Positions 57,849-64,000 of a stretch of DNA of 64,000 nt are shown here, one piece after another. The notes under the pieces were generated by a model. It was not told where the DNA came from. It did no database searches and saw only the letters and a program-made list of their open reading frames with translations. Source of the DNA: a virus; IMG/VR virus record IMGVR_UViG_3300035698_010466, positions 26,936 to 90,935 of that record, one strand, 5' to 3'. The position numbers and the translations under genes are program-made. Numbering within the stretch: position 1 is the first letter of the stretch; every line of letters begins with the position of its first letter.

Positions 57849-60800
57849 ATGGAGGATATAATCGAGGAAATAGTAACAAAAACAGAAACAAACTTCAACA
57901 ACGAATTTAGCAAAGAGATTTATGAACAGACATATAAATTTGGTAATGAGAATATAAACATAACACTAAATAGAATAGCAAAAACATTAGCAGAAAATGA
58001 AAAAGATTCTGAAAAATGGACATCGAAATTTTTAGATCTATTAACAGATTTTAAATTCGTACCAGGCGGTAGAATTATTTCAAATGCAGGAGTACCTCTA
58101 AAGGGCACAAGTATGATTAATTGTTTCGTTGATGGATTTATTGGAGAAGATCAAGATTCAATGGAAAGTATTTTAGATACATTAAGGCGACAAGCATTAA
58201 TATTAAAATCAGAAGGCGGTTATGGATTTTGTGCTAATGTGATGAGACCACGTGGGGCTTTTATTAGAGGTATTGGAAATGAATCACCAGGCTCAATTAA
58301 AATGTTAGATATGTGGAATACACAGTCTGAAGTAATAACTGAAGGAAGTGGTAAAAAACCAAAAAGAGAAGATAGCAAAATTAAAATTCGTAAAGGTGCT
58401 CAACTTTGCACTTTATCGTGCTGGCATCCTGACATTGAAGAATTTATAACTGCAAAACAAACCTCCGGTAGATTAACAAAATTTAACATGTCGGTATTAA
58501 TTACTGATGCGTTCATGGATGCTGTTAAAAATAATAAATCTTGGGCTTTAGAATTTCCTGATTATGAATATTCTGATCAACCTCCTTTCGAATCTTCTGA
58601 AAAATATCCCCCTTTAGCTATTCACGTTGCACAACAATGGTCAAAGGAGATGATAAAAATCGCATATAAAGAAGAATGGGATGGTGATTTAAAAAAATGG
58701 AAAGCAAAAGGATTACCTACACAGATTTATAAAACCTTTGAAAATGCAAATGAGTTATGGGATCTTATAATGACCTCGACTTATAATAGAAATGAACCTG
58801 GTGTACTTTTCATTGATACAATTAATAAGCTAAATAACTTAAAATATATTGAATATATTAATGCTACTAATCCATGTGTTATTGGTGAAACTTTGGTATC
58901 AACTGATAAAGGCGATATCAGAATAGACGAGCTTGTAAAGCGATATAATGAAGGTGAGAGTTTTAATGCAACATCTTACAATATTGATACAAAAACTATC
59001 GAATTAAAAGAAGTGGAATTTGCACAAAAAACAAAAAAGAACACTAATGTAATTAAATTAGTTTTAGATAATGATGAAACATTAACTTTAACACCTGAGC
59101 ATAAAGTGTATACTGAAAATCGAGGTTGGATAAAAGCTTCACAGTTAAGTAATATTGATAATTTAATTGCAATTAATACAAAACCTAAAATTAAAAAAAT
59201 AGAAATTGTTGAAAATCAAGATGTGTATGATATTAGAGTTGCTGATAATCATAACTTCTTCGGTAACAATTTATTAATACATAATTGCGGAGAGCAGACA
59301 CTCCCAATCGGCGGCGTATGTTTATTAGGATCAATCAATTTAACACAATTCATTGATTACAAGAAAGAAAATTGGGATTATGCTAAACTTAAACAATACA
59401 TTCCAACAATTATAAGATTAATGGACAATGTCAATGATATTACATATGTGCCATTAGAATATCAAACTGAAAATTTAGTAAATAAAAGACGTATAGGTTT
59501 AGGTATAATGGGATATGGTTCTGCATTAATGATGTTAAAATTAAAGTATGGATCTAAAAAAGCTTTAAGATTAACTGATGAGTTAATGAATTTTATTGCT
59601 AATACTGCATATCAATCTTCTGCCTTATTATCAAAAGAAAAAGGATCATTCAAATTATATAATGAGAAAGAATATCTTTCGTCTGCTTTTATTAAACAAT
59701 CATTATCAAATGAAACTATTGGAATGATTAAAAAGAATGGCATAAGAAATTCACATCTCTTGTCAGTGCAGCCTACTGGTAATTCCGCGATCTTTGCTAA
59801 TAATGTATCAGGCGGTTTAGAACCTTTATTTATGACTGAATACATTCGAACCTCTATTATGCCATATTCTCCTGATGGATTAGATATTCCTAAAAATATC
59901 AATTGGGAAAGTAAAGAATATGAATCATCTAATGAATGGGATTGGATTAAAGAAGGTGATGAATCTTTACTATCAATATCATATGAAGGGTATATTTATA
60001 AGTTTGATAAAAGTCGTGGATTATTAAGAGAGACTTTAGTAGAAGATTATGCTGTACGTTATTTAAAATCAATTAATGAATATGATGAAGATGCTGATTA
60101 TGTAGCAACTACCATATCATTAGGTATTGATGAACATATTGATACATTGAAAGTAATATCAAAATATGTGGATAGTGCACTATCCAAAACTGTGAATTTG
60201 TCAAATGATTATCCTTATGAGGATTTTAAAAATCTTTATATGAAATTATATGATAGTCATACTGTTAAGGGATGTACTACTTATCGTGCAGGTACTATGA
60301 CAACGGTATTATCATTAAAAGATAAATCTGAGAATGATAATAAAAATATATTAGCTAAAACACATTCACCACGAAGGCCAAAAGTATTACCTTGTGACAT
60401 ACATCAATTACAAGTGTTAGGTGAACAATGGGTTGTGTTAGTTGGTTTATATGGAGATAAGAAAGATCCTTATGAAATATTTGCATTTAAGAAAAAGGAA
60501 ATAGGAATTTCTGCTTCTATTAAAGAAGGTTTATTAACGAAAGTTAAAAGTGGCCGATATGATTTAGACATTAATGGAGTTGTACTTGAAGATATCAAAA
60601 CTCATTTTGAAACACAAGAAGAGGAAGCGTTAACTCGTATGATATCAACTGCATTAAGACATGGAGCTGATATTAATTTTATCTTTGAACAATTACAAAA
60701 ATCTGAAGGTGCTATCATATCATTTTCTAAAGCGATTGCCAGGACTCTTAAGAAGTATATTAATGATGATGATTTTAAACCTGGCGATTGTGAAGTATGT

Positions 60801-60872
60801 GAAGGGAAAGGCACTTTGGTAAGACAAGAGGGCTGTTATATTTGTGTTGGATGTGGAGCATCGGCTTGTTAA
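57849..60872 (+). CDS. nrdJ: class II (B12-dependent) ribonucleotide reductase with mini-intein
   Basis: 1007 aa. RNR domain: FVPGGRIISNAGVP, INCFVDG, RRQALILKSEGGYGF, then NATNP just before the intein (residues 343-479) and CGEQTLPIGGVCLLGSINL after it; SVQPTGNSAIFANNVSGGLEP is the 5'-phosphate loop. The C-terminal CEVCEGKGTLVRQEGCYICVGCGA is the NrdJ zinc/thiol tail. No class I small subunit seen nearby. The intein is inserted right before the catalytic Cys, so no activity is possible before splicing. Uses host-supplied adenosylcobalamin. Confidence 0.93.
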   Translation: MEDIIEEIVTKTETNFNNEFSKEIYEQTYKFGNENINITLNRIAKTLAENEKDSEKWTSKFLDLLTDFKFVPGGRIISNAGVPLKGTSMINCFVDGFIGEDQDSMESILDTLRRQALILKSEGGYGFCANVMRPRGAFIRGIGNESPGSIKMLDMWNTQSEVITEGSGKKPKREDSKIKIRKGAQLCTLSCWHPDIEEFITAKQTSGRLTKFNMSVLITDAFMDAVKNNKSWALEFPDYEYSDQPPFESSEKYPPLAIHVAQQWSKEMIKIAYKEEWDGDLKKWKAKGLPTQIYKTFENANELWDLIMTSTYNRNEPGVLFIDTINKLNNLKYIEYINATNPCVIGETLVSTDKGDIRIDELVKRYNEGESFNATSYNIDTKTIELKEVEFAQKTKKNTNVIKLVLDNDETLTLTPEHKVYTENRGWIKASQLSNIDNLIAINTKPKIKKIEIVENQDVYDIRVADNHNFFGNNLLIHNCGEQTLPIGGVCLLGSINLTQFIDYKKENWDYAKLKQYIPTIIRLMDNVNDITYVPLEYQTENLVNKRRIGLGIMGYGSALMMLKLKYGSKKALRLTDELMNFIANTAYQSSALLSKEKGSFKLYNEKEYLSSAFIKQSLSNETIGMIKKNGIRNSHLLSVQPTGNSAIFANNVSGGLEPLFMTEYIRTSIMPYSPDGLDIPKNINWESKEYESSNEWDWIKEGDESLLSISYEGYIYKFDKSRGLLRETLVEDYAVRYLKSINEYDEDADYVATTISLGIDEHIDTLKVISKYVDSALSKTVNLSNDYPYEDFKNLYMKLYDSHTVKGCTTYRAGTMTTVLSLKDKSENDNKNILAKTHSPRRPKVLPCDIHQLQVLGEQWVVLVGLYGDKKDPYEIFAFKKKEIGISASIKEGLLTKVKSGRYDLDINGVVLEDIKTHFETQEEEALTRMISTALRHGADINFIFEQLQKSEGAIISFSKAIARTLKKYINDDDFKPGDCEVCEGKGTLVRQEGCYICVGCGASAC
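58875..59285 (+). other. cis-splicing mini-intein in NrdJ
   Basis: 137 residues: Cys1 CVIGETLVSTDKGDIRIDEL (block A), LTPEHKVYTENRGWIKASQL (block B), VYDIRVADNHNFFGNN (block F), LLIHN end, then Cys+1 (the catalytic Cys of NPCGE). No endonuclease domain, so it is no longer mobile by itself. Confidence 0.93.
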
Positions 60873-60897: not shown

Positions 60898-61569
60898 ATG
60901 AAGCATATAAAAAGTTACGATTCTTTTATTACAGAAGCTAATGTACTGAAAACAAAAGAAGTTGATATTAATCAATTTCCAAATCCTTTAGGTAACGCAT
61001 TAAAAAAACATTTCTTTAAGAAAGGTAAAATGGATGGCGATCCTAATGATGATATTGTTAAAGTAGAATGGGTAAAGATTCCTGCTAAAGACCTTAAACC
61101 ATCACAGAATACTATCTATATGGCTGAGAGTTTAGAGATGGCTAGTAGGAATGTGGCAGGAGGAGATCTAGGAACTATTATATCAAAAGATAATTACATT
61201 TTGGATGGACACCATCGTTGGGCTTCAACAATGTGGAATGATCCAAACCTAGAAATTGAAGGTTATAAAGCAGATCTAAACATTGGAGATCTTATTCCAG
61301 TTTTACGTGCTTATGGTGATGCTTTAGAGAATCCAAGAACCGATGTACCAGGAGGGCATCATGTTTCAATTTTCAGTGGGACTATTGAAGATGTTCATAA
61401 TATCTTAAATGGTGAAGGAATGGAAAAATTTAAAAGATTTGATAAAAAGAAAGCAAAGAAATTTCTAGAAATTAAAGGTGATGATTGGTTTAAGAAGATA
61501 CTTAAAATGTTTAAAAAGTATAAGCCACCTTTGAATGCATTACCTCGTAAAGATATGCCATCAAATTAA
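60898..61569 (+). CDS. ParB/Srx-fold protein with capsid-targeting-like leader
   Basis: 223 aa. Leader MKHIKSYDSFITEA matches the MKxIKxFxxFIxE type. ParB-like core: IPAKDLKPSQNTIY, NYILDGHHRWASTMWND with the HHR motif of the ParB/sulfiredoxin fold, then IPVLRAYGDAL. Could be a nuclease or a CTP/ATP-dependent DNA-binding protein. Tail Lys-rich (KFKRFDKKKAKKFL). Predicted packaged protein. Confidence 0.78.
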   Translation: MKHIKSYDSFITEANVLKTKEVDINQFPNPLGNALKKHFFKKGKMDGDPNDDIVKVEWVKIPAKDLKPSQNTIYMAESLEMASRNVAGGDLGTIISKDNYILDGHHRWASTMWNDPNLEIEGYKADLNIGDLIPVLRAYGDALENPRTDVPGGHHVSIFSGTIEDVHNILNGEGMEKFKRFDKKKAKKFLEIKGDDWFKKILKMFKKYKPPLNALPRKDMPSN

Positions 61570-61641
61570 AAGAAGAAAAGAAGACGAATAAAAAAGTAGC
61601 TAATTCCTTAAACAAAGGAGAAATTGATATAAGAAAACCAT

Positions 61642-62370
61642 ATGCGTAAACTAAAACATTTATTAGTATTATTGTTGATAACATTATCACTTAATACATT
61701 CGGACAATTACCAACAAACAGCTTTAATAGTGCAATATTAGGATTAAATGCAGATACTACCATAACCAACAATAATTGGGAATTCGGTGACAAGATCATT
61801 GTGACAACTATATTAGGTGATACATGTGGTATCCAATCATACGGTTATGTTAACGTGAGTGATTCAAGTGTATTAGGAGTCGGTTTAGCTATATTTGGAA
61901 ATATTCCAAATTATGAACACTTACCTTTAGAGGGTGATACTCTTATTTATAGCTTATATGATACTGTGTATAATGTAATCCGACCTTGTTTAAATATTTA
62001 CTGGAAAGATTCTGGATATAATCCTAACTCAAATACTTGGTATACTGTACATAATGGAAACACATATAAGCAAAATGGACTTTATGTACCGTATGCAATA
62101 ATATGGGATTACAATCCACCTGTGGTAATTTCAGAAGTATCTAACGAACACGTAATTACATATCCAAACCCAGCTGATAATTTTACTAATATCAGAGGAT
62201 TACATGATAGTGATATTCAAATATTTAATATGAATGGTTCAATGATATATCATACGATTAATCAATATGGTGTAATTGAAATACCAACGTATAATTGGGC
62301 CAATGGGGTATATATAATCAAAATAACAAATGAATCTAAGATCATTACAAATCAATTGATTATACAATAA
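61642..62370 (+). CDS. secreted protein with type IX secretion sorting domain
   Basis: 242 aa. Signal peptide: MRKLKHLLVLLLITLSLNTFGQ. The middle domain (about 25-165) is beta-rich with Cys-Gly and unrecognised. The C-terminal ~75 residues match the Por/T9SS type A sorting domain: YPNPADNFTNIRG, IQIFNMNGSMIY and WANGVYIIKI. T9SS exists only in Bacteroidota, so this fixes the host phylum and predicts export or surface anchoring during infection. AAAGGAG (about 61614) is a Shine-Dalgarno-like string. Confidence 0.87.
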   Translation: MRKLKHLLVLLLITLSLNTFGQLPTNSFNSAILGLNADTTITNNNWEFGDKIIVTTILGDTCGIQSYGYVNVSDSSVLGVGLAIFGNIPNYEHLPLEGDTLIYSLYDTVYNVIRPCLNIYWKDSGYNPNSNTWYTVHNGNTYKQNGLYVPYAIIWDYNPPVVISEVSNEHVITYPNPADNFTNIRGLHDSDIQIFNMNGSMIYHTINQYGVIEIPTYNWANGVYIIKITNESKIITNQLIIQ

Positions 62371-62380
62371 AGATATAAGT

Positions 62381-63112
62381 ATGAAACACATCAAATTATT
62401 TGAAGAATTTATAGAAGAAGGATTTAATGATCCTAATATTCTTAAAGCATTTTTTATGGCAGGTGGTCCTGGTAGTGGCAAATCTTTCGTAGCAACAGAA
62501 TTATTTGGCTTTCCTAAAGATGTTGTATCATCAGTATCATATCATACAGGATTAAAGATTGTTAATTCTGATATTGCTTTTGAAAAATTAGCAAAAGATG
62601 GTGGATATGATATATCTAAACTAGGAGAGATTAAAAAAGATCAAAAGGAATGGGAGAAGATAATGGCAATTAGAAATAAAGCCAAAAGCATAACCAAAAA
62701 ACAAGAAAATAATTATCTCGAAGGAAGATTAGGATTAATCATAGATGGCACTGGTAAAGATTATGATAAGCTTAAAAAAGAAAAAGATCTTTTAGATATT
62801 TTAGGATATGATACTTACATGGTATTTGTTAATACATCATTAGACGTAGCACAAGAAAGAAATCAGAACCGTGCTAGAAAAGTACCTAAAGAATTTATAA
62901 AGGATGCGTTGATAAATGTACAAAATAATATTGGTAAATTCCAAAATCTATTTGGTAACAAAAATTTATTCATTGTCGATAATTCATCATATGATAATAA
63001 AGATGCATTAAATAAAGTAGAAAAACATTTAGCAAAACAACTTAAAGTGCCAATTCAGAATCAAATTGGTAAAAAGTGGTTATATGAAAATGATCCTAAG
63101 AATAAAAAATAA
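62381..63112 (+). CDS. P-loop kinase (zeta-toxin/AAA33-like) with capsid-targeting-like leader
   Basis: 243 aa. Leader MKHIKLFEEFIEE. Walker A FMAGGPGSGKSFVATELFG (about 26-44), LGLIIDGTGKDYDKL (Walker B-like), TYMVFVNTSLDVAQERNQNR (lid Arg). Resembles zeta-toxin/polynucleotide-kinase-type phage proteins. Predicted substrate: nucleotide sugar or nucleic acid; the leader suggests injection into the host. Confidence 0.83.
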   Translation: MKHIKLFEEFIEEGFNDPNILKAFFMAGGPGSGKSFVATELFGFPKDVVSSVSYHTGLKIVNSDIAFEKLAKDGGYDISKLGEIKKDQKEWEKIMAIRNKAKSITKKQENNYLEGRLGLIIDGTGKDYDKLKKEKDLLDILGYDTYMVFVNTSLDVAQERNQNRARKVPKEFIKDALINVQNNIGKFQNLFGNKNLFIVDNSSYDNKDALNKVEKHLAKQLKVPIQNQIGKKWLYENDPKNKK

Positions 63113-63288: not shown

Positions 63289-63348
63289 ACACCATCTTAT
63301 ATGGTCAGTTGGAGATATGTATCTTCCGATATATTATCAACCTTATAA

Positions 63349-64000
63349 ATATTAATTATTACTGGAGATATTAGTACTAATTCTTTATATCTTCCTGAAG
63401 TACAATCAAGAAACTCAGCTGAAAATTTTCCTACTGGTGGTATTATAGAAATTTGGGATGATTATGGATATTTAGGTGGTTCTATAAATATAAAGAAACA
63501 TCCAAATGATACTAATGTAACAATAAATGCTGCAAGTGATATTTTAACTTTTACTACTTCTACTACAAGAGCTAAGATAATATATTTAGGTAATGATTTA
63601 TTTGTTACTTTTGGCGCAGAATCATATTATGGCACTAAAGGCGCGCAAGGAACTCAAGGAATACAGGGTATTCAAGGAATATTCGGATCTCAAGGTATTC
63701 ATGGTATAATTGGTTCTCAAGGTACGCGAGGTACATCTGGAACACAGGGAAGTCAAGGTACATCTGGAACACTTGGTACACAAGGAACACAAGGTATTCA
63801 AGGAATAATCGGTTCTCAAGGAACACTTGGTACGCAAGGTATTCAAGGAATAATCGGTTCTCAAGGAACACATGGTACAACTGGAAGCCAAGGAACACAA
63901 GGTATTCAAGGAATAACTGGAAGCCAAGGAACACAAGGAACACAAGGTACAATTGGAAGCCAAGGAACACAAGGTATTCAAGGAATAACTGGAAGCCAAG
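63349..64000 (+). CDS. collagen-like fibre protein, 3' end beyond window
   Basis: Open frame running off the window. The visible N-terminal domain reads TGDISTNSLYLPEVQSRN and FPTGGIIEIWDDYGYLGG and ends KIIYLGNDLFVTFGAESYYG; about 120 Gly-X-Y triplets (GTQ, GIQ, GSQ, GTS) start at 63640. No ATG lies between the upstream TAA (63346) and the first domain, so the start is unclear (ATA, ATT or a frame break). Related to the fibre at 23008. Confidence 0.75.
   Translation, partial: MLIITGDISTNSLYLPEVQSRNSAENFPTGGIIEIWDDYGYLGGSINIKKHPNDTNVTINAASDILTFTTSTTRAKIIYLGNDLFVTFGAESYYGTKGAQGTQGIQGIQGIFGSQGIHGIIGSQGTRGTSGTQGSQGTSGTLGTQGTQGIQGIIGSQGTLGTQGIQGIIGSQGTHGTTGSQGTQGIQGITGSQGTQGTQGTIGSQGTQGIQGITGSQ
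63640..64000 (+). repeat. collagen-type Gly-X-Y coding repeat
   Basis: 9-base units such as GGAACACAA and GGTATTCAA; continues past the window end. Larger-period repeats (about 60-70 bases) are visible from 63780. Confidence 0.92.

What the first reader, a model, noticed from the sequence alone, without database searches (positions are those of the whole stretch)
61642..62370. Phage protein carrying a host type IX secretion tag
A signal peptide plus C-terminal T9SS sorting domain on a phage-encoded protein implies the phage exports a protein through the Bacteroidota-specific secretion system to the cell surface during infection, for example for superinfection exclusion or adhesion.
Basis: partly seen in the sequence, partly recalled or inferred. 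Interest (0 to 1): 0.65.

Follow-up and report, generated by a model that had tools for sequence, protein, structure and literature searches.

The report
Phage-encoded cargo for host T9SS
A large tailed phage that probably infects Bacteroidota bacteria carries a small gene whose protein has both an export signal and the C-terminal address tag of the host's type IX secretion system, so it is probably sent to the surface of the infected cell; such phage-encoded cargo has been reported before, and its job is unknown.

Summary
ORF 61642-62370 (+, 242 aa) ends in a type A T9SS sorting domain: TIGR04183 47.0 bits (cut-off 23), PF18962 43.9 bits (cut-off 27). It begins with a signal peptide whose predicted cleavage leaves glutamine first (NTFG|QLPT), the Bacteroidetes "Q-rule". 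It is the only such ORF in the window. It lies inside a T4-like myophage record (major head protein, terminase, sheath, tube), between same-strand neighbours 72 and 10 bp away that have phage-type N-termini, at phage-like base composition, so it is not host contamination. The best-scoring named terminase relatives are mostly phages of Bacteroidota. The passenger (residues 22-168) has no relative found.

It is not new in kind. T9SS-tagged phage proteins were reported in Cryophage (Bellas 2020) and BACON-phage contigs (de Jonge 2019). I found more: cultured Flavobacterium phage immuto, five huge-phage records of 462-735 kb, and eight IMG/VR contigs sharing one 640-aa cohesin/T9SS family. Nine of ten phage proteins aligned keep Q at +1. 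Among 98 related IMG/VR records, many of them fragments, only one had a tag, so here it is an accessory gene.

Export to the surface is the best reading. Superinfection exclusion or adhesion is not shown.

The parts
61642..62370 (+). T9SS type A cargo gene, 242 aa
   Evidence: ORF; TIGR04183 and PF18962 above cut-off
61642..61704 (+). Predicted Sec signal peptide, residues 1-21; mature protein starts at Gln22 (Q-rule)
   Evidence: Sequence; the other phage T9SS proteins in alignment A1 have the same layout
61705..62145 (+). Passenger, residues 22-168, no relative found
   Evidence: No family match or relative
62161..62367 (+). T9SS type A sorting domain, residues 174-242: YPNPADNF (174), IFNMNG (194), NGVYIIKI (221)
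   Evidence: structural matches, weak

Best explanation
The gene encodes a small secreted cargo. Inferred steps: it is made during infection; Sec exports it; signal peptidase I cuts before Gln22, which is cyclised; the host T9SS translocon (SprA-PorV) recognises the C-terminal sorting domain and moves the protein across the outer membrane; the sorting domain is removed and the roughly 150-residue passenger is anchored on or released from the infected cell. Most likely it alters the infected cell's surface to the phage's advantage, superinfection exclusion or receptor masking being my leading guess. Shown: gene, tag, signal peptide and phage context. Inferred: host, secretion, location and benefit. 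The confidence given is for export through the host T9SS; for the superinfection-exclusion guess alone it is about 0.2.
For: Tag at twice the curated cut-off, ending at the last residue. Signal peptide plus Q-rule; the Q-rule is a Bacteroidetes feature (PMC5837995) and has been used to argue that Porphyromonas gingivalis phages use host export (PMC10367356). Phage context: major head protein, terminase, tail sheath and tube upstream, tight same-strand spacing, GC 0.296 against 0.281+/-0.027 for the window's ORFs. Best-scoring named terminase relatives include Tenacibaculum, Flavobacterium and Prevotella phages. The same signal-peptide-plus-tag layout recurs in other phages, and one cargo family keeps both ends at 63-71% identity in separate IMG/VR contigs, which implies selection on the export signals. 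T9SS and gliding genes decide phage susceptibility in Flavobacterium columnare: gld and spr mutants resist phage V156 (PMC9233685).
Against: No host is known for this record and no host genome was tested for a T9SS. Some Bacteroidota T4-like phages lack any tag (Tenacibaculum PTm1 and pT24, MaF61, Lak-B1). Sorting domains can be incompatible between species (PMC11285876). Nothing shows expression, secretion or benefit, and the passenger has no known relative.
Confidence: 0.75

Rival explanations
1. A captured host gene (moron) that is exported but gives the phage no particular benefit, or only benefits the host cell.
For: Accessory: only 1 of 98 related IMG/VR records has any T9SS tag, and no passenger relative is found in phages.
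Against: Composition matches the phage, so capture is not very recent; no bacterial relative was found in the one genome-contig scan, a low-sensitivity search; T9SS cargo is conserved in other phages.
Confidence: 0.15
2. A virion protein that uses the sorting-domain fold as a beta-sandwich module rather than for secretion.
For: Phages often carry Ig-like beta-sandwich modules; a collagen-like reading frame lies nearby (63301-64000).
Against: It has a Sec-type signal peptide with a Q-rule site, not expected of a virion protein, and lacks the capsid-targeting-like N-terminus of its neighbours.
Confidence: 0.05
3. Host contamination or chimeric assembly.
For: The gene lies near the end of a linear, partial record.
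Against: Phage-type genes on both sides, one strand, 72 and 10 bp gaps, phage-like GC, a downstream neighbour with 192 IMG/VR relatives.
Confidence: 0.03

Closest known systems
Cryophage T9SS cargo (Bellas et al. 2020, PMC7468147)
   Same: Phage-encoded proteins with T9SS type A sorting domains, proposed to use the host T9SS
   Different: Cryophage cargoes are an endoglucanase, a GH39 and a PA14 protein; here the passenger has no known domain. No sequence comparison was made.
T9SS proteins beside BACON ORFs in gut phage contigs (de Jonge et al. 2019, PMC6949934)
   Same: T9SS sorting-domain proteins on phage contigs
   Different: Associated with BACON domains near head genes; none here
Cohesin/T9SS cargo of Flavobacterium phage immuto (MW353176) and eight IMG/VR contigs
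   Same: Signal peptide with Q-rule, extreme C-terminal TIGR04183, large tailed phages; immuto infects a Flavobacterium
   Different: Cohesin passenger (plus a dockerin-like stretch in the IMG/VR members) beside nuclease or lysis genes; the passengers share no detected similarity with this one
Small T9SS proteins of huge phages LR756502 and LR745206
   Same: 186-199 aa, signal peptide, short passenger, sorting domain; best tblastn hits of P0001, through the sorting domain
   Different: Passengers not alignable with confidence; they sit next to DnaJ-like and tail-like genes

Membership tests
T9SS type A cargo protein | Type A C-terminal domain above curated cut-off, at the extreme C-terminus | tested here: met
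   TIGR04183 47.0 bits, residues 174-242 of 242; PF18962 43.9 bits
T9SS type A cargo protein | N-terminal Sec signal peptide | tested here: met
   Own pattern analysis and Q-rule site; SignalP not available
T9SS type A cargo protein | Made in a cell that has a T9SS | tested here: inconclusive
   Host inferred as Bacteroidota from named terminase relatives and the Q-rule; no host genome identified
T9SS type A cargo protein | Crosses the outer membrane and loses the sorting domain, T9SS-dependent | not testable with these tools
   Needs secretion assay
Phage-encoded T9SS cargo (Bellas 2020) | Gene is part of a phage genome | tested here: met
   Phage genes on both sides; head, terminase, sheath upstream
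Cohesin/T9SS phage cargo family (immuto type) | Cohesin-containing passenger | tested here: not met
   No Pfam match other than PF18962
Superinfection exclusion protein | Its presence blocks a second phage | not testable with these tools
   Needs an infection experiment

The most novel reading that the evidence does not exclude
The passenger is a new surface effector that blocks or masks a T9SS-dependent phage receptor, or jams the translocon, so that the phage uses the host's secretion machine to shut out rival phages.
Probability: 0.12. Interest if true: 0.65.

Novelty: new member of a known kind. Interest (0 to 1): 0.36.

Why it matters
If correct, phages of Bacteroidota repeatedly equip themselves with cargo for a secretion system found only in their hosts' wider group. 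T9SS and gliding genes determine phage sensitivity in at least one Flavobacterium, so a phage that sends its own protein through that route could change who else can infect the cell. The cultured phage immuto, which carries a tagged cargo of a conserved family, makes the question testable now. The window's own protein adds one more case with an unknown passenger.

Tried and rejected
Relatives of the passenger: two viral-contig scans and one genome-contig scan found none; tblastn against phages and plasmids hit only the sorting domain; blastn found nothing. The scans need exact short peptide matches, so distant relatives could be missed. I could not reach Bacteroidota genomes with the genome search (the thymidylate synthase scan gave no genome named as Bacteroidota). 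The full-length structure model failed (pLDDT 34). A profile of sorting domains was too variable to scan with. TATAAATA late-promoter-like sites are not enriched (17 seen, about 19 expected), and no promoter or terminator signal stands out near the gene. The upstream neighbour has no match in 27 related records, so synteny at this exact site could not be followed. My guess that the signal-peptide protein beside the immuto and G003 cargo is CsgG-like was not supported by Pfam, NCBIfam or PDB searches. My recollection that the passenger resembles a repeat common in Bacteroidota surface proteins could not be tested and is not used.

Full report
What is there. ORF 61642-62370 on the + strand encodes 242 aa. 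Residues 174-242 match TIGR04183 at 47.0 bits (cut-off 23) and PF18962 at 43.9 bits (cut-off 27), ending at the last residue. Conserved blocks YPNPADNF, IFNMNG and NGVYIIKI are at 174, 194 and 221. phmmer against the PDB gives 8glk_D (deposited as Endonuclease I), E=0.0011. A model of the last 80 residues (pLDDT 71) lists 8glk_D (T9SS complex with bound NucA substrate), 8qb1 (mirolase C-terminal domain), 8gl8_D and 5m11 (PorZ) among its best structural hits, but no hit passes E 0.001 and unrelated beta-sandwiches score alike. The sequence match carries the claim.

The N-terminus, MRKLKHLLVLLLITLSLNTFG|QLPT, is a signal peptide by inspection, with Gln after the predicted cut. It is the only ORF in the window that combines a signal-peptide-like start with this site; 0 of 20,000 shuffles reproduce it, with criteria set after seeing the sequence. 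Gln at +1 is typical of Bacteroidetes but not of related phyla (PMC5837995), so the signal peptide is itself a hint of the host.

Where it is. The window is bases 26936-90935 of a 90,935-bp IMG/VR virus record. The record looks partial: it begins inside the major head protein gene and ends inside an open reading frame. Upstream lie that head protein, terminase large subunit, tail sheath and tail tube and about 30 tRNA genes: a T4-like myophage. The gene follows an unannotated ORF (60898-61569) and precedes an AAA/zeta-toxin-like kinase ORF (62381-63112), same strand, with 72- and 10-bp gaps. GC is 0.296 against a mean of 0.281. This argues against contamination.

Host. The terminase has 73-78% identical relatives in IMG/VR. 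The best-scoring named relatives are unnamed huge phages, then Sphingomonas phage PAU, Tenacibaculum, Flavobacterium and Prevotella phages. With the Q-rule and the tag itself, a Bacteroidota host is likely but not proven.

How common it is. Among 98 related IMG/VR records, many of them fragments, one (G003, 109,841 bp) has a T9SS tag. Tags above the cut-off also occur in huge phages LR756502, LR745206, LR756501, LR756500 and LR756504 and in the cultured Flavobacterium phage immuto, but not in PTm1, pT24, MaF61, PAU or Lak-B1. All ten proteins in alignment A1 start with a signal-peptide-like stretch (in two, after a longer lead that is probably a wrong start) and nine have Gln at the same place. 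In LR756501 one tag is internal, followed by a FISUMP domain.

The G003 protein (643 aa, cohesin plus T9SS tag, with a dockerin-like GDVNGSNxISITDAY stretch by eye) has relatives in seven further IMG/VR contigs of up to 254 kb (63-70% identity in the scan), each with TIGR04183 above cut-off. Six aligned members keep Gln at +1 and the tag. Some contigs may be the same phage sampled more than once (G102, G103 and G105 gave the same match length and identity). The immuto region has the same order of nuclease, secreted proteins, cohesin/T9SS protein and a second signal-peptide protein that is 62% identical to its G003 counterpart. Maintenance of both export signals in a conserved family argues that phage T9SS cargo is functional.

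What it probably does. The passenger (residues 22-168) has no relative in any search I could run, so function is inferred from location only. Best reading: export through Sec and the host T9SS, display on or release from the infected cell. A link to phage entry is plausible because gld and spr mutants of Flavobacterium columnare resist phage V156 (PMC9233685). That makes receptor masking or superinfection exclusion reasonable, but there is no direct evidence.

What is known. Bellas et al. 2020 (PMC7468147) reported three T9SS type A cargoes in Cryophage and already suggested superinfection exclusion. De Jonge et al. 2019 (PMC6949934) noted T9SS sorting-domain proteins in phage contigs. Q-rule signal peptides were noted in P. 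gingivalis phages (PMC10367356). The finding is a new member of a known kind. What I did not find stated in the open-access literature searched here (ten searches) is the tag in huge phages and in a cultured phage, with a conserved cargo family; most subscription papers and all preprints were not covered.

Noticed in passing
window 19050, 22425, 37497, 49316, 60898, 62381; L007-L010: Many ORFs begin with MKxxKLFEEFxxE-like N-termini resembling the T4 capsid-targeting sequence as I recall it. In L010 about ten of some fifteen ORFs between 3.8 and 11.1 kb carry it, suggesting a large set of proteins packaged in the head and injected. No prohead-cleavage test was made.
   Followed up: partly
L244:1357-5863; L259:1008-5990: Flavobacterium phage immuto and record G003 share a cassette: Endonuclease_NS-type nuclease (Pfam-confirmed in immuto only), secreted cohesin/T9SS protein, 103-113-aa protein, and an unannotated signal-peptide protein 62% identical between the two. 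In G003 it adjoins a GH19 endolysin.
   Followed up: partly
window 57849-60872: Ribonucleotide reductase with an intein splicing domain (PF14890).
   Followed up: no
window 63301-64000: Collagen-like G-X-Y reading frame runs off the window end; an in-frame TAA follows the ATG at 63301 after 15 codons and no in-frame ATG follows it before the repeats, so the start is unclear (frameshift, error or unusual start).
   Followed up: partly
window 61540-61653: A short open frame without a start codon (RYAIKLKEEKKTNKKVANSLNKGEIDIRKPYA*) follows the end of ORF 60898 in another frame, and its stop overlaps the start of the T9SS gene (ATGCGTAA); possibly a frameshifted tail or translational coupling.
   Followed up: partly
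L254:625-1965 (huge phage LR756501): A FISUMP (Fib_succ_major) protein with an internal T9SS-like domain at residues 84-155, unusual because the sorting domain is normally C-terminal.
   Followed up: no
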